Positions 1 to 22,199 of a stretch of 33,270 nucleotides of DNA are shown piece by piece. A program made the position numbers and the translations under genes. The first letter of the stretch is position 1, and the number at the start of each line of letters is the position of its first letter. Source of the stretch: an uncultured Chthonomonas sp. (GTDB taxonomy: Bacteria; Armatimonadota; Chthonomonadetes; Chthonomonadales; Chthonomonadaceae); the NCBI GenBank assembly GCA_903859705.1, contig CAIONQ010000111.1, forward strand, positions 1 through 33,270, read 5' to 3'. The notes below the pieces were generated by a model. The model searched no databases. It was not told where the DNA came from and saw only the letters and a program-made list of their open reading frames with translations.

Positions 1-136
<136 letters not shown>

Positions 137-4163: not shown

Positions 4164-4778
4164 ATGTATTCTGGATACCTATTACTAGCTCTTAGCTACC
4201 TGCTTGGTTCCCTGCCTTTTGGGCTATGGATAGCCTACAAGGTAAAGGGAATTGATATTCGCACGGTAGGCAGTGGCAACATTGGTTCAACCAACGTTGG
4301 CCGTATCTGCGGGCCGTTCGCCGGCGGCGTTGTGCTTACCATGGATGCTATGAAGGGGTTGCTGCCGCCGCTGGCAGGTATTGCTCTCAAACTGGGCTCA
4401 CCATGGATTATCTCTTCAGCACTCATCGCTATTATTGGCCACAATTTTTCAGTGTTTCTAAAGTTTAAAGGTGGCAAAGGCATTTCTACAAGTGTTGGTG
4501 CCTTGCTGGGAGTATGCCCACCGGTTGCTTTCATTGCTGCAGGTCTGTTCATTCTGGAAGTACTTACAATCGGATGGGTATCTCTGGGATCGTTGCTTGG
4601 GGCGGCATCTCTGCCCTTTAGCATGGCTTACTTCTATCCCCATGACGCGTACAGAATGGCATTTGCCATTGCAGCATGTACCATGGCATTTGCAAAACAC
4701 TTACCAAACATTAGGCGCCTGGCAGCAGGCACAGAGCCAAAGGTTACTCTGCGCAAGTCTTCAGACGGAAAGAGCTAA
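4164..4778 (+). CDS. plsY: Acyl-phosphate:glycerol-3-phosphate acyltransferase PlsY
   Basis: PlsY transfers the acyl group from acyl-phosphate to the sn-1 position of glycerol-3-phosphate, the first committed step of phospholipid synthesis in most bacteria, in the cytoplasmic membrane. The 204-residue length and several hydrophobic segments fit the family. Its conserved motifs are visible: GSLPFG near residue 15, GSGNIGSTNVGR near 37 (the family usually has GSGNxGATN; here Ser replaces Ala), and GHNFSVFLKFKGGKG near 92. The start is ATG at 4164, preceded by AGGAAG at good spacing. One base separates its stop from the priA start, so the two are probably co-transcribed and translationally coupled. 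Confidence 0.96.
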   Translation: MYSGYLLLALSYLLGSLPFGLWIAYKVKGIDIRTVGSGNIGSTNVGRICGPFAGGVVLTMDAMKGLLPPLAGIALKLGSPWIISSALIAIIGHNFSVFLKFKGGKGISTSVGALLGVCPPVAFIAAGLFILEVLTIGWVSLGSLLGAASLPFSMAYFYPHDAYRMAFAIAACTMAFAKHLPNIRRLAAGTEPKVTLRKSSDGKS

Positions 4779-4779
4779 G

Positions 4780-7350
4780 ATGCCTCGTCGCTCCGATTCT
4801 GACATAAGCGGCCCTGAGGGCACACACCTTTCTCTCTGGCCAGAAGATCAGGCTTCGCATGTTCTCGGCCCAATAATTGCAGCAGATGTTGCCATTGATA
4901 TTGACGCGCCAGATCTGCAGAACAACTACACTTACAGCATCCCGGCGCCCCTGATTGCTCAGGTAATCCCCGGTGCCTGTGTACACATTCGGTTTAATCG
5001 TAGAGAACTGCTTGGGTATGTAACATGCGTAAAGATACTTCCGCCATCAGATCCACTGGCAGGTAAGTTATCCCCAATTTTGGGAGTGCTTGCTCCTGCC
5101 GATGGCATCAATGAGGAGCAGCTGAATACCGCACTGTGGATGCAACAAACGTACCTGTGCGATCTCATCACAGCCATCAAGTGCATGGCCCCCAGCCTGC
5201 TGGGCCGCACTATCGAAACTATTTTCAGGCTCTCTCGCCCCGAACTGCGCGGTTATCAGGTAAGCACATCCGCAGAACTGGCGCACATTGTTGATACCCT
5301 CAGAGCCCTGGGCGGAGAAGCATCTGAATCTCAGCTTGAAACCGAGTGCGGCCTTCCAAACTTCAAAAAAGCGGTTAAGGGGCTTGTTGTTACCGGAGCG
5401 CTAATACAGAGCAAAACGCTCTCACACCCCAAAATTTCGGAAAAGCTTGTAACCGTATATGCCCTTGCGTCAGATGCAGATGTAAAGCTAACAGAATTTA
5501 AACCTGGTGCTGGCCAAAAAAAGGTGTTGGACCTGTTTGTGGATCGCCTGCAGTGTGCTGCAGATGGGCAGGCTGGCGCGTTGACTGCTACCGAGATATG
5601 CGCACTTTGTGGGGCAACACCGGCATCAATCAAATCACTTACCGATCGTGGACTTCTTGTAGCAGTGCGCAGAGCGCAACGAAGGTCTCCATACGCAGGT
5701 ATGCTCACGGGCATCCCGGCTCCCGTGCTTTCTTCTCAACAGAGAGCGGCAACAGCAGAGATAAGATCCGCAATCGCCACGGGCGAGCACAAAACACAGC
5801 TTCTCTTTGGCGTTACCGCAAGTGGTAAAACCGAAGTTTACCTGGATGCAATAGCGTGTGCTCTGCAGGGTGGCAGAACTGCAATTGTGCTTGTGCCCGA
5901 AATTGCCCTTACTGCTCAGGTAGTTGAGATATTCGTTGGGCGCTTCTCAGATCAGGTGGCAGTGCTTCATTCCCGCTTATCTGATGGAGAGCGACACGAT
6001 GAGTGGCGCCGAATTCAACTGGGAGATGCCCGAATTGTCGTGGGAGCTCGCTCAGCAATATTTGCTCCCGTTAAGAACGTTGGGTTGATTATTCTGGATG
6101 AAGAGCACGAAAGCAGCTACAAACAGGAAAGCCACCCGCGTTACAGTGCCAGAGAAGTGGCGGCAAGGCGCGCCAGTTTAAGTGGTGCCGTGCTGCTGCT
6201 CGGCAGCGCTACACCATCCGTGGAAACTTACTGGCAAACGCACAATCCCGGGCCGGATGGACGCTTGATACAACGGATAGAGATGCCAGAGCGCATCGAT
6301 CGGCGTCCCCTTCCCCATGTAGAGATTATTGACCAGAGGGCCGAGTTCAAAATACGTCGCTCGTTGTTCTCAGAACGCCTTACCGATGCCATTGGCAACA
6401 GGCTCAAGATTGGCCAACAGACAATCTTGTTTCTAAACCGCAGGGGTTACTCTCAGTTTGTACTCTGTAGGGATTGTGGCTGGACTGCTAAGTGCTCCAA
6501 CTGCGCCGTTTCGCTTACGTACCACAGCGGTGCGCGCTGCTTAAAGTGCCACCACTGTGGGCTTGTTTGCGCCGTGCCATCCCAGTGCCCTACCTGCAGT
6601 GGCGCTAATGTACGCGCTTTTGGAGTTGGTACCGAGAAAGTGGAAGAAGAGGTGCTGCGCATCTACCCTTCGGCGAGAGTTGCCCGAATGGACCGCGATA
6701 CAACAGCACGAAAAGGTGATCATGCGCGCATTCTCAAACAGTTTAGAGAGGGCGAAGCAGATGTACTGATAGGTACCCAGATGGTTGCAAAAGGGCTGGA
6801 CTTCCCTTCTGTTACTCTGGTGGGAGTAATCAGCGCAGACACTTCGATTAACATGCCTGACTTTCGGGCCGCAGAACGCACTTTTCAGCTGCTAACGCAG
6901 GTTGCCGGGCGTGCAGGGCGCGGCAAGAACCCGGGGGAAGTAATAATTCAAACCTTTAGCCCGGATAACTATGCCGTCCAGGCTGCTATTCGGCACGATT
7001 ATGTGCGGTTCTATCTTCAAGAGATAGAGTATCGCAAAGAGCTTGGATATCCGCCCTACTCTCGCCTGGTGAACCTTGTTTGCTCGCACGAGTTAGAAGC
7101 TGATGCAGAAAACCAGTGTGGCGAAATTGCTAGAGCGCTGCATGCTGTTAAGCCAAAAGCAGTAGAGCTAATCGGGCCGTCACCCGCACCACTGGCGCGC
7201 CTGAAAGGCCTTTACAGATTTCATGTGGCGATCCGCTGTGCAGATAGCAACATCTCGCTGGCAAATCTCGTGCGAAGTGCTCTTGCCAAAATGCCATCTG
7301 CGCACCGGCGAGGGTTAACCATAGACATGGACCCACAGAGCATGGCATAG
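4780..7350 (+). CDS. priA: Primosomal protein N', replication restart helicase PriA
   Basis: PriA is a 3'-to-5' DNA helicase that recognises stalled forks and reloads the replisome. The N-terminal DNA-binding domain is present (VAIDIDAPDLQNNYTYSIP...). It is followed by Walker A GVTASGKTE near residue 343 (Ala where GVTGSGKTE is usual), a DEEH box near 440 and GARSAIFAP. An inserted zinc module follows with four Cys-x-x-Cys pairs between about 561 and 606. Helicase motifs GTQMVAKGLDF (about 664) and QVAGRAGRG complete it. Length is 856 residues. The reading frame is open upstream to 4471 inside plsY, but ATG at 4780 has GGAAAGAG at suitable distance and follows plsY directly, so the upstream extension is rejected. 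Confidence 0.97.
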   Translation: MPRRSDSDISGPEGTHLSLWPEDQASHVLGPIIAADVAIDIDAPDLQNNYTYSIPAPLIAQVIPGACVHIRFNRRELLGYVTCVKILPPSDPLAGKLSPILGVLAPADGINEEQLNTALWMQQTYLCDLITAIKCMAPSLLGRTIETIFRLSRPELRGYQVSTSAELAHIVDTLRALGGEASESQLETECGLPNFKKAVKGLVVTGALIQSKTLSHPKISEKLVTVYALASDADVKLTEFKPGAGQKKVLDLFVDRLQCAADGQAGALTATEICALCGATPASIKSLTDRGLLVAVRRAQRRSPYAGMLTGIPAPVLSSQQRAATAEIRSAIATGEHKTQLLFGVTASGKTEVYLDAIACALQGGRTAIVLVPEIALTAQVVEIFVGRFSDQVAVLHSRLSDGERHDEWRRIQLGDARIVVGARSAIFAPVKNVGLIILDEEHESSYKQESHPRYSAREVAARRASLSGAVLLLGSATPSVETYWQTHNPGPDGRLIQRIEMPERIDRRPLPHVEIIDQRAEFKIRRSLFSERLTDAIGNRLKIGQQTILFLNRRGYSQFVLCRDCGWTAKCSNCAVSLTYHSGARCLKCHHCGLVCAVPSQCPTCSGANVRAFGVGTEKVEEEVLRIYPSARVARMDRDTTARKGDHARILKQFREGEADVLIGTQMVAKGLDFPSVTLVGVISADTSINMPDFRAAERTFQLLTQVAGRAGRGKNPGEVIIQTFSPDNYAVQAAIRHDYVRFYLQEIEYRKELGYPPYSRLVNLVCSHELEADAENQCGEIARALHAVKPKAVELIGPSPAPLARLKGLYRFHVAIRCADSNISLANLVRSALAKMPSAHRRGLTIDMDPQSMA

Positions 7351-7465
7351 GCTAATTTTTAAAGAAAATGAAAACGCTCCGAACAGATGTTGTGTGTACT
7401 GTGTCGGTATCGATGAAGCCCTCACAACTTCTGTTTCGCAAGAACTGTAAGAAGGAGTTACACCG

Positions 7466-8884
7466 ATGTCGAAACGTCGTCCGCGGATTGCGATGCCCAC
7501 TCTTTGTTTGCTTGCTGGCGCAGTTTTGCTGCCACACCCTGCACATGCTCAGTTTGCTCAGAGCCAGCATTCTTCGTCAGAAAACAGCTATCTCCTCACC
7601 TCAGATTTTGCTTGCATTATAACTCCACCCTACAGAATTGCCGACAATGTGGAGACATTCAGCTGGTCTCCAGATGGCCATCGGATCCTCGCATTTGCGT
7701 ACTCTCCGCAGATATTCAACCCGGAAAAGCCACAGCCGGAAAGCGACTTAATAGTCAACCGTTACAGTGCCGATACCCACACAACAACAACCGTTTTCAA
7801 GCGTCACTTTGATACGCGCCCCGCACTGGCAGGTGAAACAGCATGGGTGGGCAAATCCAATACGGCCGGGCAGATGGTTTTCTGGCAAGAAGTGAAAGTA
7901 AGCACTACGCCAGATGGTAAACAAAACCGAGAATCGATGATGCATCAGGCGCTAATGTGGATCGATGCATACCGGGGCACTGTGCGAATGCTGCCTGCAG
8001 AACAAGGTGACGAGATACTTGCATCCCCCACATCCAATGCCGCGGTTCACATGCACAGATTTGGCGGAAGCATAAATGGGAGCACTGTAACCTCAATCTT
8101 GCCAGATGGCACTCCCGGGCATGTTGTTGCACTGCCGAGTGGCACGCAGATTGTGCAGACGGAGTGGCTTGCAGAAGGCAAAGCCCTGGGGATGCTACTA
8201 TTTTCTGTACCATCCGCTGTTAGAGGAGACACTAAGACCAATCCGGCTCCCAGGCCACCTCAGTATGCTGTTTTCCATGTAGATAGTGAAACAATTACGC
8301 TGGTGGATAGGAATAAAATCACCGCTTATCGGCCTACTGCTCCGCAGACAAAAGGAACGCTTTTTACTAAATCAACATCGCAGCATGTAACAGATTCCGG
8401 TATTGATAACATTATCCACCCCCTGTGGCTGGCCACAAAAGATGCCACCGAAAAACAGCAGGCAATGCTTTCCAGTGATAGTGATATGGCACGTATGTCG
8501 CCCAACGGGATGTGTGCCGCCTATCGGGCAAATGGTGCCGCATGGGCCGTAGATGTTGTTAAAATCTCTGCAGCTGAGTTCAAGTCTGCCCGTGCCGCGG
8601 CGCGAAGGGCAACTGTCCTGAGCCAGGGCAAACAGGTAGCTCTGGCCGCGATTATGTGGGCCGCGGATCATGATGACACGCTTCCATCAGCAACCAACCT
8701 CAACGACGAATTAACCCCCTACCTTAAGAACTCGCAGTTGTTTGACGGCTTGAACTGGACCTACGCCGGCGGGCCGATGTCTGCCATTCAATCACCTGCA
8801 GAAACGGAGCTCGGGACTATCGATGGCGGAGAAGGCCTGGCTGTTATGTATGCTGATGGGCATGTAAAGTGGCGAAACAGATAG
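7466..8884 (+). CDS. Exported beta-propeller-like protein with a pilin-type C-terminal tail
   Basis: A 472-residue protein with a clear signal peptide (MSKRRPRIAMPTLCLLAG..., cleavage after PAHA, about residue 28). The body is beta-rich with WD40/TolB-like elements (FSWSPDGHRILAFAYSP; MSPNGMCAAYR). From about residue 375 it changes to a pattern seen just after the N-terminal helix of pilin-like DUF1559/H-X9-DG proteins: ARRATVLSQGKQVALAAIMW, then AADHDDTLP, and it ends in MYADGHVKWRNR. The hydrophobic prepilin helix itself is absent. AAGGAG precedes ATG 7466 at good spacing. It ends 71 bases before the preferred sigma factor start and could be the first gene of that operon. Function unknown; the domain calls rest on motif resemblance. 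Confidence 0.85.
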   Translation: MSKRRPRIAMPTLCLLAGAVLLPHPAHAQFAQSQHSSSENSYLLTSDFACIITPPYRIADNVETFSWSPDGHRILAFAYSPQIFNPEKPQPESDLIVNRYSADTHTTTTVFKRHFDTRPALAGETAWVGKSNTAGQMVFWQEVKVSTTPDGKQNRESMMHQALMWIDAYRGTVRMLPAEQGDEILASPTSNAAVHMHRFGGSINGSTVTSILPDGTPGHVVALPSGTQIVQTEWLAEGKALGMLLFSVPSAVRGDTKTNPAPRPPQYAVFHVDSETITLVDRNKITAYRPTAPQTKGTLFTKSTSQHVTDSGIDNIIHPLWLATKDATEKQQAMLSSDSDMARMSPNGMCAAYRANGAAWAVDVVKISAAEFKSARAAARRATVLSQGKQVALAAIMWAADHDDTLPSATNLNDELTPYLKNSQLFDGLNWTYAGGPMSAIQSPAETELGTIDGGEGLAVMYADGHVKWRNR

Positions 8885-8941
8885 GCATTCTATCAGAGGT
8901 AAATGCAGCAGCTGTGGAGGGCGCATTAAACGTACCCCTGC

Positions 8942-8947
8942 AGGAGG
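8942..8947 (+). promoter_or_regulatory. Shine-Dalgarno site that decides the sigma factor start
   Basis: AGGAGG, the strongest ribosome binding site in this interval, lies eight bases before GTG at 8956. The longer reading frame from GTG 8869 has no comparable site and would overlap the preceding gene by 16 bases. This favours 8956 as the true start. Confidence 0.6.
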
Positions 8948-8955
8948 CTCATGCC

Positions 8956-9516
8956 GTGGTGCCAGCCTCTACGGAAATGGAGATCCGCGTACACCGCGCC
9001 ATTTCCGGGGACAAGGAAGCCTTTGAGAGGCTGGTGTATGAGCACCGGCCCAGGGCTCTTCGACTCGCGAGTTCTGTTCTGAAGAATTCTTCAGAGGCCG
9101 AAGACGTGGTGCAGGAAGCATTTCTAAGAGCCTGGGCCAATATCTCAAGCTTCAGAATGGATTGCACGTTCTATTCGTGGATGTCCCGGATAGTGATCCG
9201 GCTGTGCCTCAACCGCCTGCGCTCACCTTTCTGGAAGCGGCAAGATCTTTCGATGTTCGAGACTGCCGTGCAGGGACACATGGTTACCCACGCGGATGCA
9301 TCAAATGCTCGAATAGTGGTGGCTCAGCTGCTCAATTCGATGTCACCGCCACTCAGGGCCGCCCTCATACTTCGCGAACTGGACGGCATGGAATACGAAG
9401 AAATTTCGTTCGCACTGGGCATTCCAGTTGGCACAGTAAAGTCCAGGCTAAACGCTGCCCGTAATCGATTTGCCGGCCTTTGGAATGCGATACAGAAGGA
9501 GACAGACAGTGTCTGA
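8956..9516 (+). CDS. ECF-type RNA polymerase sigma factor
   Basis: A 186-residue sigma-70 family protein of the extracytoplasmic-function class. Region 2 reads AFERLVYEHRPRALRLA, then EDVVQEAFLRAWANI and FYSWMSRIVIRLCLNRLR. Region 4 reads MSPPLRAALILRELDGMEYE, then ISFALGIPVGTVKSRLNAAR, the DNA-binding helix-turn-helix for the -35 element. No region 3 or 1 is present, as usual for this class. GTG 8956 is chosen from the AGGAGG eight bases upstream; GTG 8869 would add 29 residues without homology and overlap the upstream gene. The next gene starts on an overlapping GTGTCTGA. ECF factors are normally held by an anti-sigma factor encoded next to them, which points to the following gene. Confidence 0.93.
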   Translation: MVPASTEMEIRVHRAISGDKEAFERLVYEHRPRALRLASSVLKNSSEAEDVVQEAFLRAWANISSFRMDCTFYSWMSRIVIRLCLNRLRSPFWKRQDLSMFETAVQGHMVTHADASNARIVVAQLLNSMSPPLRAALILRELDGMEYEEISFALGIPVGTVKSRLNAARNRFAGLWNAIQKETDSV

Positions 9517-10075
9517 AAAAATCCCGTTAAACGATGAGGGCGCGCAAGTAGACGGGTTGTCGCCTGTAGCAGCAAGGGCACTGATCGAAGGTTTGCAGGA
9601 TGCTCTGCCTGTACCAGATCCAACCGGATCAACGGAGATCTCAAATATCATTCGCGGTGGGAACGACCTCAACCCATTGCCGCAGCAAATCATGAAGAGA
9701 ATCTCCTGGATGGCGCTCCCGCTACTGATTGCCTTTGCCACCACAAGCCTGCTTCTTGGGCATGCTGCTATAAAGCCTGTTCAAGTTCCATTCGTCTTTA
9801 ACCCGAACGTAGCCATGCTCAAGGAAGAAGCGGTGCAGGCGCCAGAACCCACCCTCACTTCGGCCGAAATGCAGCGGTTGGTGGCCACTGTACAAAATAT
9901 CCCTACCGACGATAACCTCACGAAGTTGATCGGAGATTCTGACGATGCCAGCGTATTTACGCCGCTAGACTACCCGCCATCATGGTGGATTACAGCCATT
10001 GATAAAGAGAAATCTCACCGAGTGCCAACCAGCAAAAACAATGCCTCATACAAATACTATGGGAGCGGCAAATGA
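9509..10075 (+). CDS. Single-pass membrane protein, candidate anti-sigma factor
   Basis: A 188-residue protein starting at GTG 9509, inside the last codons of the sigma gene (8-base overlap) and preceded by AAGGAGA. Residues 1-64 are polar and would be cytoplasmic; one membrane helix (ISWMALPLLIAFATTSLLLG) spans about 65-85; the rest (about 100 residues, Pro and acidic rich) would be outside. Topology and position behind an ECF sigma gene are those of an anti-sigma factor, but I see neither a HxxxCxxC zinc anti-sigma motif nor a known receptor domain. The role is inferred from context. The next gene begins on ATGA overlapping this stop codon. Confidence 0.82.
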   Translation: MSEKIPLNDEGAQVDGLSPVAARALIEGLQDALPVPDPTGSTEISNIIRGGNDLNPLPQQIMKRISWMALPLLIAFATTSLLLGHAAIKPVQVPFVFNPNVAMLKEEAVQAPEPTLTSAEMQRLVATVQNIPTDDNLTKLIGDSDDASVFTPLDYPPSWWITAIDKEKSHRVPTSKNNASYKYYGSGK

Positions 10076-12027
10076 AACTGAGTACACACTTAACTTCAGG
10101 GAAAACTTCGTGGCAGGTCCTGGGTGTCGCAGCCGGAATAGTGCTGGGCCTGTCCACCAATCCACATTTACGTCCACTTATTGTATCGGCATATAGGTGG
10201 CACAGTGCAGGCCCACAACTTGATCTTGCATTGGCCCCAGGGCGCTCAACTTCTCCCAATGCCAGGCAAGAACTGTCGGCTCGATTGCAATCACTCATCT
10301 CTAATAAAACAGCAGACCCTGCAGTCGCTGCAGCCGCCGCTCCTGCAGCGTTTGCAGCAAGCTCTGGTGCATTAGAAGACCGAGTAGTGCAGAGTATTCC
10401 GGAGGCGTCGCTTTGCTGGTCAACAATGGAGGAAAGCAGCCGAGCACATATTGCGCGGGTGATACCGCTGCAAACCGTATTCCACTCTCACCGGAATAGT
10501 CCTGTTGTCGCTGCTGCTTTAACCAGAGCAATAGTTTGTGCAGTAAGCGATTTCAAACGCGCAGATGCGGCGTTTGTGAATGGTGTCTATCCTCGTCCTG
10601 AAGATAAGTATCATTCAGAAGCAAAGTCCGAAGCTCGATTGGGGCCGCTAAACAGGGCACTGCAATTACGATTACTGGCAGTCACGGCGGCTGGCGAAGC
10701 CCTGGAACCTGGTAATGCTTATTGGCCACTGTGCGCAGCACTGGGGCATATGGGGCTACGGGATGATCGGAGTATGATTGCAGCAATGGACCGCGCACAC
10801 CGCTGCACACATTTCAACGAACACTCGAGCGAGCTTCTATCTGGGGCATGCACTCTATACGGTCTCCTCAACCCCGGGCGCACCACTTCGGCTGAAATGC
10901 TTAAAGTTATCGACAACCAGCCATCAACCGTAGTCTACTACCTCTCACTTCTCTGGACGGAATGTGCATGGAAGTCCGTATTACTGGAGCATCAGGGCAA
11001 CAATGATGCAGGTTTTGCCATTCGGTTGCGATTGGCAAAAACCGCAGCACTGGTTGCATCAAACGCCGCTTCACTCGATTGCCGCTTGGTTTCAGATTCA
11101 CTCGTTCTAAATTCAATGGTCGCCATCGGCGGTAATACTGCCGGAATTGCTACTGGCCAACAGCCAGATGTAACGAGAGCACAATCTTACAGTGCCGCGG
11201 TCAACCATCTGGACGCTTTAGGCGAAAAGCAAACGGCAGATTGGTTTCGGTTCGCAGGTGGCAAGGCACTCCGGCATCACGAATGGTTCTCCAGAGGCGC
11301 CAATGTGTATGATCTGGACCTTAGGGGAGTAAACACATCGATTTTCTATTGTGCTACTCTGTGGATTGCAGGGGGACTTTTTGTGGTGGCTGTGCTTGCA
11401 GCCACCGCCACACTGGCCAGAGCAAGAACCAGGTTTATGGTAGCAGAGCCGCCGCCCTGCCTGGCTGAAGCGAAACTTGGAGCAAATGCTGCAATCTGGT
11501 GTATGGTGCTCGCGCTTGGGGCAATCTACTCACATGTGTCCAGAGTGTCGCTCGTGGCCTGTATCATTACCGCGATAATCACAGGTAGTGCGCTGGTGGT
11601 AAGTAAACGAAATGTGCGCCGCCCTGCCGGATTGGGACACGGATACTGGGAAACAGCCGGGTGGGCTTTCTACACCGTACTGCTTGCACTCATAGGTACC
11701 TGGCAGCTCGGTGTACTCTTTAGCCCGGATGGTGAAAGTAGCATGTTTGCATCTGCAGGCACTACCATGCTACAGGCCCATTTCGCTGCTGCCGCTACCC
11801 AGCTGCCGTTTGCGTGCTTATTCTGGTACCTTACATTTGTGATGCAGCGCATTAAGTACATAAGCCCCAATGTGGCCGTATACCGGCTGGCAAAAATTGG
11901 CGCCATCCCTGCACTCACGTTGATCTTGTTGTGCTTTGCCCTGCTCTCCTGGAAAACAGCATCCTATGAAGCCGGGTTCCGGGCAACAATGAACAAGGTA
12001 ACCGCCATTAATCTGCCCGCCGAATAA
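10072..12027 (+). CDS. Large polytopic membrane protein of unknown function
   Basis: A 651-residue protein not recognised from any named family. A first hydrophobic stretch near 16-35 (VLGVAAGIVLGL) is followed by about 380 soluble residues, mostly helical and Ala-rich with several Cys, predicted extracytoplasmic. The C-terminal third holds about five membrane helices: IFYCATLWIAGGLFVVAVLA near 423, IWCMVLALGAIYSHV, VSLVACIITAIITGSALVV, FYTVLLALIGTWQLGVLF and IGAIPALTLILLCFALLSW near 620. The start ATG overlaps the stop of the preceding gene (ATGA), so it is translationally coupled to the sigma factor pair. It may be a sensor or the main product of the operon; no catalytic motif is seen. Confidence 0.85.
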   Translation: MKLSTHLTSGKTSWQVLGVAAGIVLGLSTNPHLRPLIVSAYRWHSAGPQLDLALAPGRSTSPNARQELSARLQSLISNKTADPAVAAAAAPAAFAASSGALEDRVVQSIPEASLCWSTMEESSRAHIARVIPLQTVFHSHRNSPVVAAALTRAIVCAVSDFKRADAAFVNGVYPRPEDKYHSEAKSEARLGPLNRALQLRLLAVTAAGEALEPGNAYWPLCAALGHMGLRDDRSMIAAMDRAHRCTHFNEHSSELLSGACTLYGLLNPGRTTSAEMLKVIDNQPSTVVYYLSLLWTECAWKSVLLEHQGNNDAGFAIRLRLAKTAALVASNAASLDCRLVSDSLVLNSMVAIGGNTAGIATGQQPDVTRAQSYSAAVNHLDALGEKQTADWFRFAGGKALRHHEWFSRGANVYDLDLRGVNTSIFYCATLWIAGGLFVVAVLAATATLARARTRFMVAEPPPCLAEAKLGANAAIWCMVLALGAIYSHVSRVSLVACIITAIITGSALVVSKRNVRRPAGLGHGYWETAGWAFYTVLLALIGTWQLGVLFSPDGESSMFASAGTTMLQAHFAAAATQLPFACLFWYLTFVMQRIKYISPNVAVYRLAKIGAIPALTLILLCFALLSWKTASYEAGFRATMNKVTAINLPAE

Positions 12028-12038
12028 TAACAAATGAG

Positions 12039-12072
12039 GTTTTAGGAGGCAGGGGAACCTGCCTCCTAAAAC
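12039..12072. repeat. Perfect 15-bp inverted repeat with GGAA loop
   Basis: GTTTTAGGAGGCAGG (12039-12053) and CCTGCCTCCTAAAAC (12058-12072) form a perfect stem around a GGAA tetraloop. The T-run is on the 5' arm and the A-run on the 3' arm, the reverse of an intrinsic terminator, and no U-tract follows on either strand. It starts 11 bases after the stop of the membrane protein gene and ends 12 bases before the DUF192 start codon. It may act as an RNA stability or attenuation element, or as a protein-binding palindrome. Confidence 0.75.
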
Positions 12073-12084
12073 GAATTTGGCCAC

Positions 12085-12468
12085 ATGCAAAATGACTTAC
12101 GCCAACTGTGGGATCTTGAGCAGGGAGTTATTATTGTCCCGAAACTTCAGATGGCAGCATCGGTATGGCAACGAAGTGCAGGATTACTGGGCAAGAAATC
12201 GCTGGATACAGATTATGGAATGTGGATCGCTCCCTGCGGGAGCATCCACACCTTTTTCATGAAGTTTGCCATTGATGTGGTGTTTATTAACGGCAAGGGC
12301 GAAGTTACGCATATTATCCCGGATCTACAGCCCTGGCGAATTGGGGCTGCTCCCGCTAAAACGCGCGCTGCTCTGGAACTGCCAGCCGGTGCCTGCTCAC
12401 GCATTGGCCTTAAGGTTGGCAGCCGCGTGCTGGTAACCACTTCTGGCACTCCAGATTTCAAGGGATAG
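12085..12468 (+). CDS. DUF192 family protein
   Basis: A 127-residue protein whose core matches DUF192: SAGLLGKKSL, then GMWIAPCGSIHTFFMKFAID, VVFINGKGEV, a PWR motif (LQPWRIGAAPAK), LELPAGACSRIGLKVGSRVL. The family is a small beta-structured domain of unknown biochemical function, sometimes exported; no signal peptide is evident here. ATG 12085 is the only start available, since an in-frame stop lies at 12067. There is no convincing SD: the sequence upstream is occupied by the perfect hairpin. It converges on the large minus-strand gene, with only eight bases between the stops. Confidence 0.92.
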   Translation: MQNDLRQLWDLEQGVIIVPKLQMAASVWQRSAGLLGKKSLDTDYGMWIAPCGSIHTFFMKFAIDVVFINGKGEVTHIIPDLQPWRIGAAPAKTRAALELPAGACSRIGLKVGSRVLVTTSGTPDFKG

Positions 12469-12476
12469 TCAGTAAT

Positions 12477-15302
12477 TTAAGGGTGTAGCGGTTCTCCAAT
12501 AAATCCAATCGATACCCGCAATCGAGGACGTGCCCGTCCATTGGATGCTGCCGATACCCGAACCCGAGTTTGCCCCGCACCAATAGGAACGGCCTGAATG
12601 CCCTGGAGGTTGGTTAGCACAGCACCTGTTCCAGAGTAAACCACCGCCGTTGTGCCTCCATCATACTCCACGCAGCCACCGGCGGGCACCTCGCACGGAA
12701 ACCGCAGGGTTACTCCCCCAATTATAACTGTGGGGTTCTTAAGAGATAGGTTTTGCAGCGGCATCGCATACACGGAGCCGATCTGAATTTCAGTTGAGCC
12801 CTTAGATAAGTTGTTCAGCCACATGCTGAACTCACCTATCTGGCCATACTCAGTAGACTCCCTGTAAATCGAATACGGATCTCCATATGGCCAGCTATAC
12901 TCCGCCCATCGGCGCCCCTCGGGCTCAACCAGCTCAACCCACCGCCAGCCCGTAAAGTCCAGTGTCACGTAATGCTCACCAATGCCGGCCACCACATGAG
13001 ATGGGCAGCGTAATTGCAGGTTCAGCAAAGCGCCGCTGCCATCGCCCTTAACCCACACCCCAAGCCCTTCGCGCCCCTTCAAATTGCGCACTTCTGAGAA
13101 AACTCTCTTAAACTGAACCCAGGAACCGGTTCGCGTTGCGCTGCTGTTTTCGGCCTGAATAGTGGCAACGGCCTCTCCACCGGGTGTTAACGTGCCAGCG
13201 GCAGATATCCTCGCAGTTATGCCGGGCGCAGCCTGTGCCAGTGTCACCTCTCCTGATGCCGGATCAGCCAGACTAATTCGGTCTGCTGCTGGGCCTGCTT
13301 CCCCGGCCTGCTGCAGGGCTTCGATACGCAGCCTGTAGTGTCCCGTTTTAGTTGGATTATTAACTACTGTTGTGTCAGATACCCACTTATCATCACTTTG
13401 AGTAAATTGATCTGGCCAAATTTTCGCGGTGGAAACAGGAGAAAAGCTCCACCCGGCCTTCAAATCTCCAGTCAGTGTGAACTCGGAATTTGGCTGGGCC
13501 AGTTTCTCTCGCATTGATGTCGGCACTTTCCCGGAGTGGCGCAGATCTTCGTAGCGCTTTATAAGATCGGCGTACCGAGGAAGTGCAGGTACCTTTTGCA
13601 TCATTGTCGGGTCTATACCCATCAGCGCCAGGCCGTTTCCAGTACCCAGGCACTTGCACAGCAGGTACTCCATATCATCTGAGTAGGTAGGCTCACCAGA
13701 GGCTCCTGTCCAGGTACGGATCGACCACCAACCGAGTTGCCCCGGAAGAAACATCCGGGCACACTCCTCGTTCGCTTTGCAATGGATATCAATGAACTGC
13801 TTATGGCTGCGAGTGGGATGATCCCACGCCCCCATACGGCTCCTTACGTACCACAGGTGGTGATGAAACGTGCTCATCTCCATCAGTGCAGATTTCCTAA
13901 GGCGCTTGTTTATCTCCCACACAAACTGAGATCCATAATGCCATGCCAGATCATTGCCACCAAGAATTCCCTCCCCATCCAACGCATCCAGGTAGATCAT
14001 GTCAAACCCACACTCGTTGAACATTGAGGCGGTACTGCCAGCAACTTCTGCAAACAGCGTGGTATTCGGATCTGGAACAAAGAGCCCAAAACACTCTTTG
14101 AGGTGGCGAAGATTAGCACCCTTTTTGTGGGCAGCAACGTGGGTACCGAAGGCTCCCCGGGTGCAGTTAGTAAACGCAAACTTGCCATCTTTTTGAACAC
14201 CACTGTAGTTAATTAGCTCATCGTCCACCATCAATGTAATGCTGTTGAACACAAAGAACCCTGTTATGGCGTTCATGTTTGCTGTGGTTTCCAACACGGG
14301 AACTGTGGTCGATGCCGCATCAAGGTCGTCTGCAAGCGTGAATTCAGAATCGTACGCAAGCCTCTTATCCGGCACAGGGGTAACCCACTTGCACTTCTTA
14401 TCCATAAAAAATGCATAGGTGTGAAGTCCGGCCTTTATGCCAGCTGCATGCAACTTATCAATAACGCGTTTGAAGCTTGCACGTCCCGCTGGGTAAGTTT
14501 GCGGGTTCGGCACGCAGTCGCCAAATCGAAATGAACTTCCTCCATGAAAATCGATCTGGTTAAGGCCGGCACGCTGCGCAAGGGCAATCCACTCTCCTAC
14601 GTTCTGTTCTGTCATGCCACCAAAGTTAAACAGGTAGCTGCCGCTGTTAATGGCCTTGCCAAGTGCGAATGGGCCACCTATCGATGAGTGTGGCAACTCC
14701 GGCGCATCCAAAACCGCCGCCTGAAGTGCGCCATGGAACTGCTTCGTTTTGCTCACAACAATGGATGCCGCCGCCCCTGCAAAACCAAACTTCGATATCG
14801 CGTACGCCTTCAACTGGTTCGTAGCGCGTGGAACTTCCTCTACATTCGTTTGAAGGTTAAGTGCAAGCGCACATGCAGAAGTTGGCTCGGCGGGTATCCC
14901 CTTTAGTGTGAGCGGAATGTCAAACAATACCAGGCGATCGGCATCGGTCAGCCTTGCCTCCTTAACCTGGAAAGTGATGGCCGATCCCTTGGTTTTTACT
15001 CTGATGGATACCGTGCCATGAGAACCATAATCGAGCTCCAACACACCCTGTCGATAGATCGCATGCAATGGCAGCACTGGCCCAGACTTTGTTGTAAGCT
15101 GCCCAAGCTGCCCGGCTGCCCCCGCAATACTCACCCCGCGCGCCCTATCCAAAAGAGCAGTAACATGCCCCCTGGCATCGGCTTCCATTCGAATTGTGCT
15201 GTTTTGCAACACAATTTCTTGCGATGTGGCTTGTACGGTCATTCCAATGGTACAGGCAGCAAAACCAAGTGTAATCTGCAGCTTGGCAGCGGCATTCATC
15301 AT
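12477..15302 (-). CDS. Large secreted glycoside-hydrolase-like protein
   Basis: A 941-residue protein with a signal peptide (hydrophobic to about 22, cleavage near VQA-TSQ). An N-terminal beta-sandwich runs to about residue 230. A TIM-barrel-like domain follows: NQIDFHGGSSFRFGD near 247, FKRVIDKLHAAGIKAGLHTY near 285, and FDMIYLDALDGEG near 437, whose Asp is in the position of a strand-end catalytic acid. A beta-rich insert (TTVPVLE...INYSGV...TNCTRGAFGTHVAAHKKGA) interrupts the barrel between about 320 and 405. The last 350 residues are beta-rich and may bind carbohydrate. The fold resembles alpha-galactosidase-type (GH-D clan) enzymes, but family and substrate cannot be fixed by eye. GGAG lies upstream of ATG 15302; it is divergent from pruA across about 200 bases. 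Confidence 0.82.
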   Translation of the reverse strand: MMNAAAKLQITLGFAACTIGMTVQATSQEIVLQNSTIRMEADARGHVTALLDRARGVSIAGAAGQLGQLTTKSGPVLPLHAIYRQGVLELDYGSHGTVSIRVKTKGSAITFQVKEARLTDADRLVLFDIPLTLKGIPAEPTSACALALNLQTNVEEVPRATNQLKAYAISKFGFAGAAASIVVSKTKQFHGALQAAVLDAPELPHSSIGGPFALGKAINSGSYLFNFGGMTEQNVGEWIALAQRAGLNQIDFHGGSSFRFGDCVPNPQTYPAGRASFKRVIDKLHAAGIKAGLHTYAFFMDKKCKWVTPVPDKRLAYDSEFTLADDLDAASTTVPVLETTANMNAITGFFVFNSITLMVDDELINYSGVQKDGKFAFTNCTRGAFGTHVAAHKKGANLRHLKECFGLFVPDPNTTLFAEVAGSTASMFNECGFDMIYLDALDGEGILGGNDLAWHYGSQFVWEINKRLRKSALMEMSTFHHHLWYVRSRMGAWDHPTRSHKQFIDIHCKANEECARMFLPGQLGWWSIRTWTGASGEPTYSDDMEYLLCKCLGTGNGLALMGIDPTMMQKVPALPRYADLIKRYEDLRHSGKVPTSMREKLAQPNSEFTLTGDLKAGWSFSPVSTAKIWPDQFTQSDDKWVSDTTVVNNPTKTGHYRLRIEALQQAGEAGPAADRISLADPASGEVTLAQAAPGITARISAAGTLTPGGEAVATIQAENSSATRTGSWVQFKRVFSEVRNLKGREGLGVWVKGDGSGALLNLQLRCPSHVVAGIGEHYVTLDFTGWRWVELVEPEGRRWAEYSWPYGDPYSIYRESTEYGQIGEFSMWLNNLSKGSTEIQIGSVYAMPLQNLSLKNPTVIIGGVTLRFPCEVPAGGCVEYDGGTTAVVYSGTGAVLTNLQGIQAVPIGAGQTRVRVSAASNGRARPRLRVSIGFIGEPLHP

Positions 15303-17058: not shown

Positions 17059-17103
17059 CTTCGGCGTATTCACACTCAAAACATGTGTCTGGGAGCCTGT
17101 TCT

Positions 17104-20100
17104 ATGCACTGGATCGTTGTAGGACGCAAGCAGCTGATTGCCGCTACCATTGGCCTCACCGCTGCAGGAGCACTTTTGCCTGCCACTGCACTTGCAGGTG
17201 CACCAGTCAAGGCTCCCAAACCCATCTCGCCAGATTTCAACCGGGAAGTTCGGCCAATTCTTTCCGGCCACTGTTTAAAGTGCCATGGTCCGGATGAAAA
17301 GCAGCGCAAAGGCGGACTGCGGCTGGATCAAGCCAATGCCGCCGTACGCCTTGCTAAGGGCTCAGCCAGCGCAGAAACTACCGAGTTCGTACAGCGCATA
17401 GTTGCGCACGGGCCGGAAATGATGCCGCCGGTTACTGCAAACAAGCCTCTATCACCTGCCGAGATTACAACCCTCAAACGCTGGGTAGCGGCGGGGGCAC
17501 ACTACGAGCCACACTGGGCATTCGTCCAGCCCCATCAAGCTCCCCTGCCCCAGGTTCACGCTGCAGCCTGGGTGCGCAATCCCATCGATAGGTTTGTATT
17601 GTCTCAAATCGAAAAGGCTGGTCTAAAGCCTTCCGAGCAGGCAGATAAATACTCGCTCATTCGGCGAGTCTATCTTGACCTTATTGGTATCCCGCCAACG
17701 CCCAAACAAACCGAAGCGTTTGTGAACGATCATCGGCAAGATGCCTACGAGCGTGCCGTGGATCAGTTGCTCGCTTCGCCCCATTATGGCGAGCGCTGGG
17801 GCCGCAAATGGCTGGATCTGGCTCGCTATGCAGATACAAACGGCTATGAGAAGGACCGTCCGCGCAGCGTCTGGCCTTACCGAGATTGGGTTATCAATGC
17901 GCTGAACCGGGACATGCCATTTGATCAGTTCACTATCGAGCAGATTGCAGGGGATATGCTCCCAAACGCCTCAACATCCCAGCGTGTAGCAACAGGCTTC
18001 CACCGCAATACAATGCTGAATGAAGAAGGCGGCATCGATCCTCTGGAGTTCCGTTTCTACTCCATGACGGATCGCATGGCAACCACCGGCACTACGTGGC
18101 TGGGGCTTACCACGGGGTGTGCCCAATGCCATAGCCATAAGTACGACCCCATTACCCAGAAGGATTACTACCGCACCATGGCCTGCATGGATAACACCGA
18201 AGAGGTGACCATGGAGGTTCCAGATCCCGCAACCCAGGCAAAACGTATCTCCGTTTTTTCTGAGGCAGATAGGCGAGAGAAGCATCTGGCGGATATGTTC
18301 GGGCGGCAGGAAAAGGTTGACTGGCAGCCCACGGCAATCTCCAGCACGGTTACGCGCTCTGGCGCAACAGCCAATAATAAGCCAGATGGATCGGTCTTAA
18401 TTTCGGGCACAAACCCGGAAACAGACCAATACACAGTTGCAGCCACGGCAACGGCCGGCACCGTCAACGGCATAAGGCTCGAAACCCTCACAGATCCTTC
18501 GCTTGGCAACACCGGCCCTGGCCGCACTCCACACGGCAACTTTGTGCTCTCGCACTTCACGGCGCTCCTCAAAACGCCCGCATCCCCTGCCGGAACTCCC
18601 GTTAAGTTCACACGGGCAGAAGCGGATGTCACTCAGGATTCGTTCGCGCCAACTAACGCAATCAGCGGGGTTTCTGGCTCTGGCTGGGCAGTTGCCGTTA
18701 ACGGAAAACTGAACAACAACCATCAAATCGCCTTCTACACGCAAGCACCCATTATCGTACCTGCTGGTTCCACGTGGGAGTTTAAGCTCTCAATGGAGTT
18801 TGGCGGTTACCATACTATTGGCCGCTTTAGATTTAGTACCGGCAAAACAGAAGGCACTGCCGCCGATTCCGCCCAACGCATACGGACAGCATATGAAGCG
18901 GCGCTAGCTGCGTGGATCAAAGATAAGTCTGCAAAAACTACCGCCTGGGAGATCATTCGCCCAGGCAAAATGGATGGTGGCATCCCTAAGCTCAACCAAC
19001 TGCCAGATGGTTCGATTTATGTAACGGGCGACCAGACCAAGCTGGACGTTTACAACCTCACACTGCCCTCTAAGCGCAACAAGCCAATCACTGCAATCCG
19101 AATTGAAGCAATGCCCGATGACCGCCTTCCAGGCAGTGGCCCGGGCCGCGTATTCTATGAAGGATCTGCTGGCGATTTCTTCCTCAGTGAAATGGCACTG
19201 AAAGCAGATGGCAAAGACGTATCTTTTGCAGCAACCGTCCAGAACGGGGGCGATGCCTCTAAAGCCATCGATGGCAACAAACAAACCGGCTGGTCAGTTG
19301 GTGGCCGCCAGGGGAAATCGACCACTGCAATATTCAAACTGAAAGAGCCCGTATCTGCAGACAGTCTCAACTTGCGTATGGAGTTCGAACAGTACTACTC
19401 AGCGCCGCTCGGCAGGTTCCGCATCTCATACACATCAGATGCCGGCGCACTCAGTGCAGATCTGCCCGATGACGTAGAACGAGCACTGAGAACCGAGCCA
19501 GCTGATCGAACTAGGGCACAACTCGCTGCAATAGAATCGCAGTTTCTTGCAACAACACCGGAGCTACAGGCCGAGCGCGATGCCATCGCAGAACTCCGGC
19601 GCAGCGCTCCCACGCCGCCCACATGCCTTGTTTTCCGAGAGAGACCCGCAGACAACCCACGAAAAACCTTTGTTCACCATCGTGGCGAATTCTTGAGCCT
19701 GGAAGAGCAAGTAACGCCTGGCACACCAGTTTTTCTTCCTGCAGTGGATAGGGGACCAAATGCCAATCGCCTTACACTGGCAAAGTGGCTCGTATCCTCA
19801 ACCAATCCGTTAACGGCGCGAGTAACCATGAACCGGCAATGGTCAATCCTGTTCGGGCGTGGCATCGTAAAAACTACTGAGGACTTCGGTTACCAGGGAG
19901 ATCCGCCAACTAATCAGCCGTTACTCGATTGGCTCGCCGTCGAGTTTATGAAGCGAGGATGGTCGCTCAAACAGATGCACCGCCTCATGGTAACAAGTGC
20001 AACCTACCGCCAATCATCGCACATAACAACGAAGAAACTGGAAACCGACCCGGAAAACAGGCTGCTGGCACGCGCTCCACGCGTTCGCCTTGAAGCAGAA

Positions 20101-20697
20101 CAGATCCGTGATGCAGCACTTTCTACTTGCGGCCTACTTTCTGAGAAGATCGGTGGCCCCAGCGTTTACCCACCCCAACCCGCCGGTGTTACCTCAGAAG
20201 GTGCATATGGTGCCTTGAACTGGAGTGTAAGCATGGGCGAGGATCGCTACAGACGTGGGTTATACACGTTCAGCAAGCGTACAGCACCATACGCCATGTT
20301 CCAAACGTTTGATGGCCCCAGCGGAGAGATCTGCGTTGCACGGCGAGAAGTTTCTGATACACCACTTCAAGCGCTAACTCTCTTGAATGATACGGTGTTC
20401 ATGGAGGCCGCACAGGCCCAGGGCAAGCAGTTTGCAACCATGCCAGGCACCGATGGAGTGCGCGCAGGCAAACTGTTCATGCGGATGATTTCTCGGGCAG
20501 CATCAGCAAAAGAGCAAGCTGCACTGGCGGCATTTGTGGGCGCACAGCGCACCCGGTTTGCATCCGGCGAGCTGGATGCTAGAGCCGTATGCGGCCTCCC
20601 CGCATCAGATAAGTCTGCTGATCTGCCCGAGCGCGCAGCATGGACAGTCGCAGCGCGTGCGTTGCTCAACCTTGATGAGTTCATAACCAAGCAGTAG
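17104..20697 (+). CDS. Planctomycete-type cytochrome c/DUF1549/DUF1553 protein
   Basis: A 1197-residue exported protein. It has a signal peptide (MHWIVVGRKQLIAAT..., cleavage near ALAG-AP). A PSCyt1 domain follows with haem site C57-L-K-C-H61, then DUF1549 (NPIDRFVLSQIEKAGL; WGRKWLDLARYADTNG) with a second CxxCH at C339-A-Q-C-H343, and C-terminal DUF1553 (NPLTARVTMNRQWSILFGRG; YGALNWSVSMG). Between them, about 390-830, lie two related beta-rich modules, each with a GPGR...G.F.LS core. These proteins occur with DUF1501 partners, and a role in polysaccharide or sulfate-ester breakdown has been suggested but not settled. The start is ATG 17104 with GGGAG eight bases upstream; ATG 17083 adds seven residues without an SD. 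Confidence 0.93.
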   Translation: MHWIVVGRKQLIAATIGLTAAGALLPATALAGAPVKAPKPISPDFNREVRPILSGHCLKCHGPDEKQRKGGLRLDQANAAVRLAKGSASAETTEFVQRIVAHGPEMMPPVTANKPLSPAEITTLKRWVAAGAHYEPHWAFVQPHQAPLPQVHAAAWVRNPIDRFVLSQIEKAGLKPSEQADKYSLIRRVYLDLIGIPPTPKQTEAFVNDHRQDAYERAVDQLLASPHYGERWGRKWLDLARYADTNGYEKDRPRSVWPYRDWVINALNRDMPFDQFTIEQIAGDMLPNASTSQRVATGFHRNTMLNEEGGIDPLEFRFYSMTDRMATTGTTWLGLTTGCAQCHSHKYDPITQKDYYRTMACMDNTEEVTMEVPDPATQAKRISVFSEADRREKHLADMFGRQEKVDWQPTAISSTVTRSGATANNKPDGSVLISGTNPETDQYTVAATATAGTVNGIRLETLTDPSLGNTGPGRTPHGNFVLSHFTALLKTPASPAGTPVKFTRAEADVTQDSFAPTNAISGVSGSGWAVAVNGKLNNNHQIAFYTQAPIIVPAGSTWEFKLSMEFGGYHTIGRFRFSTGKTEGTAADSAQRIRTAYEAALAAWIKDKSAKTTAWEIIRPGKMDGGIPKLNQLPDGSIYVTGDQTKLDVYNLTLPSKRNKPITAIRIEAMPDDRLPGSGPGRVFYEGSAGDFFLSEMALKADGKDVSFAATVQNGGDASKAIDGNKQTGWSVGGRQGKSTTAIFKLKEPVSADSLNLRMEFEQYYSAPLGRFRISYTSDAGALSADLPDDVERALRTEPADRTRAQLAAIESQFLATTPELQAERDAIAELRRSAPTPPTCLVFRERPADNPRKTFVHHRGEFLSLEEQVTPGTPVFLPAVDRGPNANRLTLAKWLVSSTNPLTARVTMNRQWSILFGRGIVKTTEDFGYQGDPPTNQPLLDWLAVEFMKRGWSLKQMHRLMVTSATYRQSSHITTKKLETDPENRLLARAPRVRLEAEQIRDAALSTCGLLSEKIGGPSVYPPQPAGVTSEGAYGALNWSVSMGEDRYRRGLYTFSKRTAPYAMFQTFDGPSGEICVARREVSDTPLQALTLLNDTVFMEAAQAQGKQFATMPGTDGVRAGKLFMRMISRAASAKEQAALAAFVGAQRTRFASGELDARAVCGLPASDKSADLPERAAWTVAARALLNLDEFITKQ

Positions 20698-20704
20698 GGA
20701 AGTG

Positions 20705-20721
20705 CCGCTGTAGTTCAGCGG
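20705..20721 (+). repeat. Short intergenic hairpin
   Basis: CCGCTG (20705-20710) and CAGCGG (20716-20721) form a 6-bp stem around TAGTT between the cytochrome and DUF1501 genes. It ends 11 bases before the GGGAG ribosome binding site of the DUF1501 gene. There is no U-tract. It could be incidental or modulate the second cistron. Confidence 0.35.
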
Positions 20722-20744
20722 TCAACCGTTCTGGGAGCATTCTA

Positions 20745-22199
20745 ATGGATCCAAAGAAACTGGTGGAAGCGTATAAAATGCACGAGGGCCGGAGACACTT
20801 TTTTAGAGAGTGTGGCCTTGGTGTGGGCAAAATTGCGCTGGCGTCTCTCCTAACCGATGCATACTCATCGTCCGCTGCCGGTGCTGCGCCTCCGGGTGTA
20901 AACCCGTTTGCCGTAAGAAAGCCGCACTTCGCGCCTAAGGCAAAGCGGGTTATTCACCTGTTTATGGCAGGTGCCCCCAGCCAGCTGGATCTGTTTGATT
21001 ACAAGCCAGATCTTATTAAGTACGAAGGCAAACCGCTTCCACCATCCGTTATAGGCAACCAGAGATACGCTTTCATCCGGCCAGATGCTGCGGTGCTTGG
21101 CCCTCGCTTCAAATTTGCGAAGTATGGCCAGAGCGGTGCAGAACTTTCGGAGATGCTCCCACACCTTTCTAAAATAGTGGATGACATCTGTATTGTGCGC
21201 TCTGTTAGCACAACCCAGTTCAACCACGCCCCGGCACAAATTTTCTTCAACACCGGTTTTTCACAGCCCGGCCGCCCGAGTTTTGGTAGCTGGACCATTT
21301 ATGGCCTGGGTGCCGAAACGCAAGATCTGCCTGCCTTCGTTGTTATGTCTACCGGCGCTGGCATAAGCGGCGGTGCCGCAAACTGGTCCAGTGGCTTTCT
21401 GCCAAGCGTCTATGGCGGCGTGCGCCTGCGCAACCAGGGAGATCCCATTCTGGATGTAACGCGCCCTGCTGGCGTGGATGATAAACTTCAGCGAGACACA
21501 CTGGATCTGATTGGGCAGTTCAATAACTCTGAGCTTGCCTCTACCGGTGATCCGGATATAGCAGCCCGTATAGCGGCATACGAAATGGCCGCGAGGCTGC
21601 AAACCTCCGCACCGGACCTGATGAACCTGCACACAGAATCTAAAGAAACTCTGGCTATGTACGGTGCCGATCCAGAGAAGCCATCTTTCGCAAGAGCCTG
21701 CCTGCTTGCCCGCCGAATGATCGAGCGCGGCGTGCGCTTTGTAAACATCTACCACGAAGGTTGGGATGCACACTCCGATGTCGTAGGCAACCTCAAAGGC
21801 AACTGCGGGGCCACCGATCAGGCATCGGCCGCGCTGGTTATGGACTTGAAACAGCGCGGATTGTTGGACGACACCCTTGTTATCTGGGGTGGCGAATTCG
21901 GCCGAACTCCTATGGGCGAATCCAACTCCGGGCTCGGCCGCAATGCCGGCCGGGATCACCACCCATCTGCATTTACCATCTGGCTGGCAGGTGGCGGTAT
22001 CAAGCGTGGAGTTTCGTATGGCAAAACCGATGACCTTGGCTTCAATGCCATCGAAAATCCAGTACACATCCACGATCTGCAGGCTACGCTTCTGCACCTA
22101 CTCGGTCTGGATCATGAGCGCCTTACCTACCGCTATGCTGGCCGAGACTTCCGCATTACCGATGTGGAAGGCGAAGTGATTAAAGGCCTACTTGCGTGA
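20745..22199 (+). CDS. DUF1501 family protein (sulfatase-like fold), Tat-type signal
   Basis: A 484-residue DUF1501 protein, structurally related to the alkaline phosphatase/sulfatase superfamily. The N-terminus has GRRHFFRECGLGVGKIALAS, an RR-containing hydrophobic signal resembling a Tat leader. Characteristic segments are KRVIHLFMAGAPSQLDLFDY, SVSTTQFNHAPAQIFFNTG, GRPSFGSWTIYGLG, NIYHEGWDAHSD, LVIWGGEFGRTPMGE and GRDHHPSAFTIWLAGGG. The His and Asp residues in the last blocks are the likely metal ligands. It follows the cytochrome/DUF1549/DUF1553 gene by 47 bases in the usual order for this pair. GGGAG stands seven bases before ATG 20745. The substrate is unknown. Confidence 0.95.
   Translation: MDPKKLVEAYKMHEGRRHFFRECGLGVGKIALASLLTDAYSSSAAGAAPPGVNPFAVRKPHFAPKAKRVIHLFMAGAPSQLDLFDYKPDLIKYEGKPLPPSVIGNQRYAFIRPDAAVLGPRFKFAKYGQSGAELSEMLPHLSKIVDDICIVRSVSTTQFNHAPAQIFFNTGFSQPGRPSFGSWTIYGLGAETQDLPAFVVMSTGAGISGGAANWSSGFLPSVYGGVRLRNQGDPILDVTRPAGVDDKLQRDTLDLIGQFNNSELASTGDPDIAARIAAYEMAARLQTSAPDLMNLHTESKETLAMYGADPEKPSFARACLLARRMIERGVRFVNIYHEGWDAHSDVVGNLKGNCGATDQASAALVMDLKQRGLLDDTLVIWGGEFGRTPMGESNSGLGRNAGRDHHPSAFTIWLAGGGIKRGVSYGKTDDLGFNAIENPVHIHDLQATLLHLLGLDHERLTYRYAGRDFRITDVEGEVIKGLLA

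What the first reader, a model, noticed from the sequence alone, without database searches (positions are those of the whole stretch)
8956..12027. ECF sigma factor coupled to two unrecognised membrane proteins: candidate new signalling system
Three genes overlap (GTGTCTGA, then ATGA): an ECF sigma factor, a single-pass protein with anti-sigma topology but no known anti-sigma motif, and a 651-residue protein with a ~380-residue external domain and about five C-terminal helices. The third could be a sensor, an anti-sigma partner or a release factor. Together with the exported protein at 7466 this may form an envelope-sensing unit not matching the common RseA or zinc anti-sigma types.
Basis: partly seen in the sequence, partly recalled or inferred. 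Interest (0 to 1): 0.62.

Follow-up and report, generated by a model that had tools for sequence, protein, structure and literature searches.

The report
Three-gene Armatimonadota ECF sigma switch
This stretch holds a self-regulated genetic switch, made of a sigma factor, a shortened membrane anti-sigma factor and an undescribed membrane protein with a TPR-like outer domain, and the same trio recurs across the bacterial phylum Armatimonadota, so it looks like a common but overlooked envelope-signalling module.

Summary
Sigma, middle gene and third gene recur in this order in at least 51 loci of the phylum Armatimonadota. 49 of 119 third-gene homologs have an ECF sigma directly upstream, against 0 of 237 control ORFs. 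All 28 testable nearest sigmas are followed by both genes. The middle protein is not of an unrelated type. Orthologs in the same operon position, one in this genome, are zinc anti-sigma factors (zf-HC2, HxxxCxxC). The window copy aligns with them from just after the zinc motif to the membrane helix. It is best read as a zinc anti-sigma domain trimmed of helices 1-2; zinc loss happened at least three times in these operons. The third protein founds an undescribed family (163 of 291 genomes): an N-terminal helix, a TPR-like external solenoid and about six membrane helices, with no sign of a protease. Operons share a spacing-specific promoter, GAAC-N17/18-[CT]GTC. The window copy lies at 7380, upstream of the exported-protein gene. 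It is the only intergenic exact match in the genome, so this is a four-gene autoregulated operon. The likeliest role of the third protein is partner or sensor for the anti-sigma factor; self-controlled effector is the main rival. New variant of a known kind.

The parts
7380..7405 (+). ECF-type promoter CGAAC-N17-TGTC (-35 at 7380-7384, -10 at 7402-7405), 86 nt upstream of the ATG at 7466
   Evidence: Motif class GAAC-N17/18-[CT]GTC found upstream of 25 of 49 operons, shuffles mean 0.9, max 4, only spacings 17 and 18 enriched; TGTC/N17 form shared by the window sub-clade; only intergenic exact match among 11 in the genome
7466..8884 (+). exported protein, 472 aa, first gene of the operon; weak C-terminal DUF1559 / H-X9-DG-like match
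   Evidence: Pfam PF07596 E 0.0096, below its cut-off; same position upstream of sigma in congener G001 (L036), and beside a third-gene homolog in L045
8956..9516 (+). ECF sigma factor, 186 aa, sigma2 + sigma4
   Evidence: PF04542 1e-16, PF08281 1.4e-14; PDB relatives RpoE, SigH, SigW; AGGAGG at 8942-8947
9509..10075 (+). single-pass anti-sigma factor, 188 aa: cytoplasmic 9509-9700, membrane helix 9701-9757, external tail 9758-10072; zinc half missing
   Evidence: Gene position and profile match to zf-HC2 orthologs; no HxxxCxxC in its own sequence
10072..12027 (+). 651-aa membrane protein of an undescribed Armatimonadota family: N-terminal helix about residues 13-31, external TPR-like solenoid about 60-410 (10249-11301), membrane part about 424-627 (11341-11952)
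   Evidence: Homologs in 163 of 291 genomes; AF2 pLDDT 80-97 over most of the solenoid, membrane part low; TPR matches
12039..12072 (.). perfect 15-bp stem-loop at the end of the operon

Best explanation
This is an autoregulated ECF sigma switch. Resting state: the sigma is held at the membrane by the short cytoplasmic part of the 188-aa protein, a class I zinc anti-sigma domain that has lost helices 1-2 with the zinc site and keeps helices 3-4. The external tail of the anti-sigma is read by the 651-aa partner, whose N-terminal helix and membrane bundle hold a TPR-like domain outside the membrane. A signal at that domain, possibly the exported 472-aa protein or its ligand, changes or exposes the anti-sigma and frees the sigma. 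The sigma then transcribes from CGAAC-N17-TGTC at 7380 and makes more of all four proteins, a closed positive-feedback loop with few or no other targets. Shown by sequence: the genes, their conserved linkage, the descent of the anti-sigma, the promoter motif; supported by a model: the TPR-like fold. Inferred: inhibition of the sigma, contact between the two membrane proteins, the signal and the release step.
For: Linkage: 49 of 119 against 0 of 237; two further triplets; 28 of 28 testable nearest sigmas have both genes downstream. Anti-sigma identity: orthologs with HxxxCxxC, zf-HC2 4.3e-9, only PDB hit RsiW though weak, E 0.36, profile match E 1.4e-7. L106 lacks residues 4-37, exactly the zinc half, in an otherwise alignable protein, and its sigma lies in the zinc clade. 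Cytoplasmic segment median 94.5 residues with zinc, 61 without. Partner: TPR-like fold; conserved external tail motif PPVPLxSLLxxPxPRAALLW in the zinc clade; in L043 the separate middle gene is gone and the third gene starts at its place. Promoter. Literature: helix 1 of class I domains binds sigma4, helix 4 binds sigma2, HxxxCxxC spans helices 2-3 (PMC7406223).
Against: 70 of 119 third-gene homologs have no sigma beside them and linked and unlinked ones interdigitate in the tree (17 changes), so the family does more than serve sigma factors. The exact promoter occurs in no other intergenic place, which fits an effector role of the operon products equally well. The suspected fusion L043 rests on position; its N-terminal similarity to the anti-sigma is weak. 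No complex could be modelled. The tail motif of the zinc clade is not clearly kept in the window protein.
Confidence: 0.55

Rival explanations
1. The third protein (and the exported protein) is the output, not the sensor: the sigma / anti-sigma pair controls only the making of this envelope protein, and sensing lies in the anti-sigma or a protease elsewhere.
For: The only intergenic exact promoter in the genome is that of the operon itself; many homologs stand alone, so the protein has a job without sigma.
Against: Unlinked homologs do not carry the promoter (4 of 70, shuffles 1.3); 28 of 28 testable nearest sigmas keep the protein; L043 replaces the anti-sigma gene by an extended third gene.
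Confidence: 0.3
2. The third protein is itself the anti-sigma or part of a two-protein anti-sigma, its cytoplasmic N-terminus touching the sigma.
For: L043 has a 60-residue cytoplasmic extension starting where the anti-sigma should start; third-gene homologs next to zinc anti-sigmas in L058, L096, L097 start with a DFxxAVLANL segment that resembles helix 4.
Against: Most members, the window included, have a short N-terminus; similarity of the extensions to the anti-sigma is at noise level.
Confidence: 0.08
3. The third protein is a protease or release factor that cuts the anti-sigma.
For: Multi-pass membrane protein beside a single-pass anti-sigma, like the site-1 protease PrsW, an integral membrane protease that cuts RsiW (PMC4598750).
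Against: No Pfam or NCBIfam peptidase match above cut-off; conserved columns lie in the external domain and none in the membrane part looks catalytic.
Confidence: 0.04

Closest known systems
SigW-RsiW (Bacillus subtilis) and other class I zinc anti-sigma pairs
   Same: ECF sigma followed by a single-pass anti-sigma of the zf-HC2 / ASDI class; orthologs here keep HxxxCxxC, and RsiW is the only PDB hit of one of them
   Different: The window copy lacks the zinc motif and about 30-40 N-terminal residues; a third, TPR-like membrane protein is encoded with it
CnrH-CnrY-CnrX (Cupriavidus metallidurans), class II anti-sigma
   Same: Sigma, short single-pass anti-sigma whose cytoplasmic part has two helices, and a periplasmic sensor (PMC4598750, PMC7406223)
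   Different: No shared descent shown; the third protein here is TPR-like with about six further membrane helices; the anti-sigma descends from class I
RpoE-RseA-RseB (Escherichia coli)
   Same: Membrane anti-sigma with a second protein that binds its external part (PMC8103513)
   Different: No RseA or RseB domain found; the third protein is membrane-embedded

Membership tests
ECF sigma factor | sigma2 and sigma4 without sigma3 | tested here: met
   PF04542 1e-16, PF08281 1.4e-14, 186 aa
Class I zinc anti-sigma (zf-HC2 / ZASD) | HxxxCxxC zinc motif | tested here: not met
   Absent from the window protein; present in orthologs L058, L059, L103 and others
Class I zinc anti-sigma (zf-HC2 / ZASD) | descent from the family | tested here: met
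   hhalign of the window clade against zinc orthologs: probability 94, E 1.4e-7; same gene position and overlap; L106 intermediate
Class I zinc anti-sigma (zf-HC2 / ZASD) | three-helix bundle plus helix 4 | tested here: inconclusive
   The part aligned begins behind the zinc motif, which implies loss of helices 1-2; no structure of the window protein was made
Class II anti-sigma (CnrY type) | two helices that wrap sigma2 and sigma4 | not testable with these tools
   Needs a complex structure; the cytoplasmic part of 64 residues reads as two helices by eye only
RseA / RseB | RseA or MucB/RseB Pfam domains | tested here: not met
   No match for either protein at E 1
Tetratricopeptide repeat proteins (third protein) | Pfam TPR model above cut-off | tested here: not met
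   Only 2 of 13 members match TPR_19 weakly, best E 0.036; the window protein matches nothing
Tetratricopeptide repeat proteins (third protein) | TPR-type helical hairpin solenoid | tested here: inconclusive
   Top Foldseek and VIA matches are mostly TPR proteins, but no Foldseek E <= 0.001 and Z 8-11

The most novel reading that the evidence does not exclude
Within one conserved operon lineage, the zinc class I anti-sigma domain has been cut down several times to a two-helix domain like that of class II (CnrY), each time in the company of a dedicated TPR-type membrane partner that has taken over signal reading; the module is a phylum-wide signalling system of Armatimonadota that has not been described.
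Probability: 0.4. Interest if true: 0.7.

Novelty: new variant of a known kind. Interest (0 to 1): 0.58.

Why it matters
Armatimonadota carry many ECF sigma factors (many in Chthonomonas calidirosea, PMC4959169; 30 rpoE genes in Fimbriimonas, PMC4072686), and I found no paper on how any of them is controlled. Here one whole class gets a defined module, a promoter motif and a third component. The series from zinc domain (L170) through zinc-less full length (L175) to trimmed (L056) inside one clade shows how one class of anti-sigma domain could turn into another, and makes it directly testable which helices are needed to hold a sigma factor.

Tried and rejected
Single-protein scan of genome contigs with the third protein found nothing; a diverse alignment had no stretch conserved enough to search; a narrower one gave 20 named loci. 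The idea that unlinked third-gene homologs belong to the same regulon: motif in 4 of 70, near shuffle level. The idea that L043 is a proven fusion: N-terminal similarity not significant in a profile test and p 0.039 for one of seven pairs. A wide regulon: exact-motif matches are inside genes except the operon's own. The apparent depletion of the motif against its reversed control is mostly base composition. Literature searches found no description. The ECF group number could not be assigned.

Full report
Observation. The three overlapping genes are present as described. The sigma is an ordinary ECF factor (PF04542, PF08281) whose closest solved relatives include RpoE, SigH and SigW. The 188-aa and 651-aa proteins match no Pfam family and nothing significant in NCBIfam. 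The window is contig C111 of a 6.24-Mb genome. The length match is an inference.

Linkage. A profile of the third protein finds homologs in 163 of 291 genomes of the phylum, often several per genome. In the window and 110 fetched loci (L036-L065, L096-L175), 49 of 119 long homologs have an ECF sigma within 1 kb upstream on the same strand; 0 of 237 other long ORFs do. Between them lies a short single-pass gene in nearly every case, its start mostly overlapping the sigma stop by 8 or 4 bases. Two more triplets turned up later. Of the 29 sigmas most similar to that of the window in the 31 nearest genomes (E < 1e-30), 28 are followed by both genes (in L043 by the extended third gene alone); the 29th sits at a contig end.

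The middle protein. In 27 of the 49 operons it carries HxxxCxxC, and two of the 12 members scanned match Pfam zf-HC2 (best 4.3e-9). The only PDB hit of the L059 ortholog is RsiW, at a weak E of 0.36. A profile of the zinc-less proteins of the window clade aligns with the zinc orthologs of the same family at probability 94 and E 1.4e-7, starting just behind the zinc motif and running through the membrane helix; with the membrane helix removed the cytoplasmic part alone still gives E 3e-4, the external tails do not match. On the sigma tree the zinc state needs five changes, at least three forced by well-supported branches, against 16 in shuffles. The cytoplasmic part is shorter without zinc (median 61 against 94.5 residues; Mann-Whitney p 3e-8, not corrected for kinship). 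Two cases show the path: L106 has lost residues 4-37, exactly the zinc half, while its sigma stays inside the zinc clade and its external tail motif is kept; and in one clade of Fimbriimonadaceae L170 has zinc, L175 is zinc-less at full length, L056 is zinc-less and short. The genome of the window has a zinc-bearing copy as well (L103 / L199, G000:C90). Mixed zinc and zinc-less groups are known among class I anti-sigma domains, and helix 1 contacts sigma4, helix 4 sigma2 (PMC7406223). New here is the loss of the helix 1-2 region.

The third protein. AF2 on 22 sequences gives an all-helical external domain at pLDDT 80-97 over most of residues 60-410 and a poorly resolved membrane part. Structure matches are mostly TPR proteins, without any Foldseek E below 0.001 and with VIA Z of 8-11, so TPR-like is the fair word. 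The strongest conserved columns (GERLDPDNAFFP) fall in this domain and none in the membrane part looks catalytic. Between window and congener the sigma keeps 54% identity, the third protein 22%, so it evolves fast. 70 homologs stand without a sigma, and linked and unlinked ones interdigitate.

Promoter. Upstream of the operons the motif GAAC-N17/18-[CT]GTC occurs in 25 of 49 sequences; shuffles give 0.9 on average and 4 at most; spacings 17 and 18 give 8 and 17 sequences, all others 0-2. In the window it lies at 7380, upstream of the exported-protein gene, and the same TGTC form with N17 is found in L036, L047, L061, L163, L196 and L197, the nearest zinc-less operons. CGAAC-N17-TGTC occurs 11 times in the whole genome; ten matches are inside ORFs and the only intergenic one is this promoter. 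No forward sigma-70-like site was found in 7300-12600. The operon therefore reads exported protein - sigma - anti-sigma - third protein, apparently autoregulated and with few if any further exact-motif targets; weaker variants of the motif were not searched.

Mechanism. Most likely, anti-sigma and third protein form the membrane unit that holds and releases the sigma. Evidence is the near-obligate gene trio, the conserved external tail motif of the zinc clade, the peptide-binding type of fold outside the membrane, and L043, where the third gene begins at the place of the missing anti-sigma gene. That last case is suggestive only. The chief rival makes the third protein the output. Neither is proven.

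Noticed in passing
window 12085-12468: A DUF192 gene follows the operon behind a perfect 15-bp hairpin; a DUF192 homolog also follows the third gene in L036 and L048.
   Followed up: partly
L199 12144-15310 (G000:C90): A second, zinc-bearing copy of the module in the same genome, with its own CGAAC-N17-CGTC promoter; that motif also lies intergenically upstream of two other genes (L217, L224).
   Followed up: partly
L049 8426-13191 / L183: Third-gene homologs in tandem with an extra anti-sigma-like gene between them and no sigma in between.
   Followed up: no
L133 2012-4436: Reversed order: third-gene homolog first, ECF sigma directly behind it, and the promoter motif 48 nt upstream of the homolog.
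   Followed up: no
L058, L096, L097 starts of the third gene: Cytoplasmic N-termini with a DFxxAVLANL segment that resembles helix 4 of the anti-sigma domain.
   Followed up: partly
window 4471-7350: The PriA ORF carries about 138 residues before the start of the PriA profile; the true start is probably downstream.
   Followed up: no
window 1-130: The contig begins inside the 3' end of a 16S rRNA gene.
   Followed up: no
window 23751-26687: Regulator with BTAD, AAA/NB-ARC and TPR domains (SARP-like).
   Followed up: no
window 17083-22199: PSCyt1/PSCyt2/PSD1 protein followed by a DUF1501 protein, a pair of planctomycete type.
   Followed up: no
window 12477-15302, minus strand: A 941-aa exported-looking protein with only a weak CBM_11 match below cut-off.
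   Followed up: no
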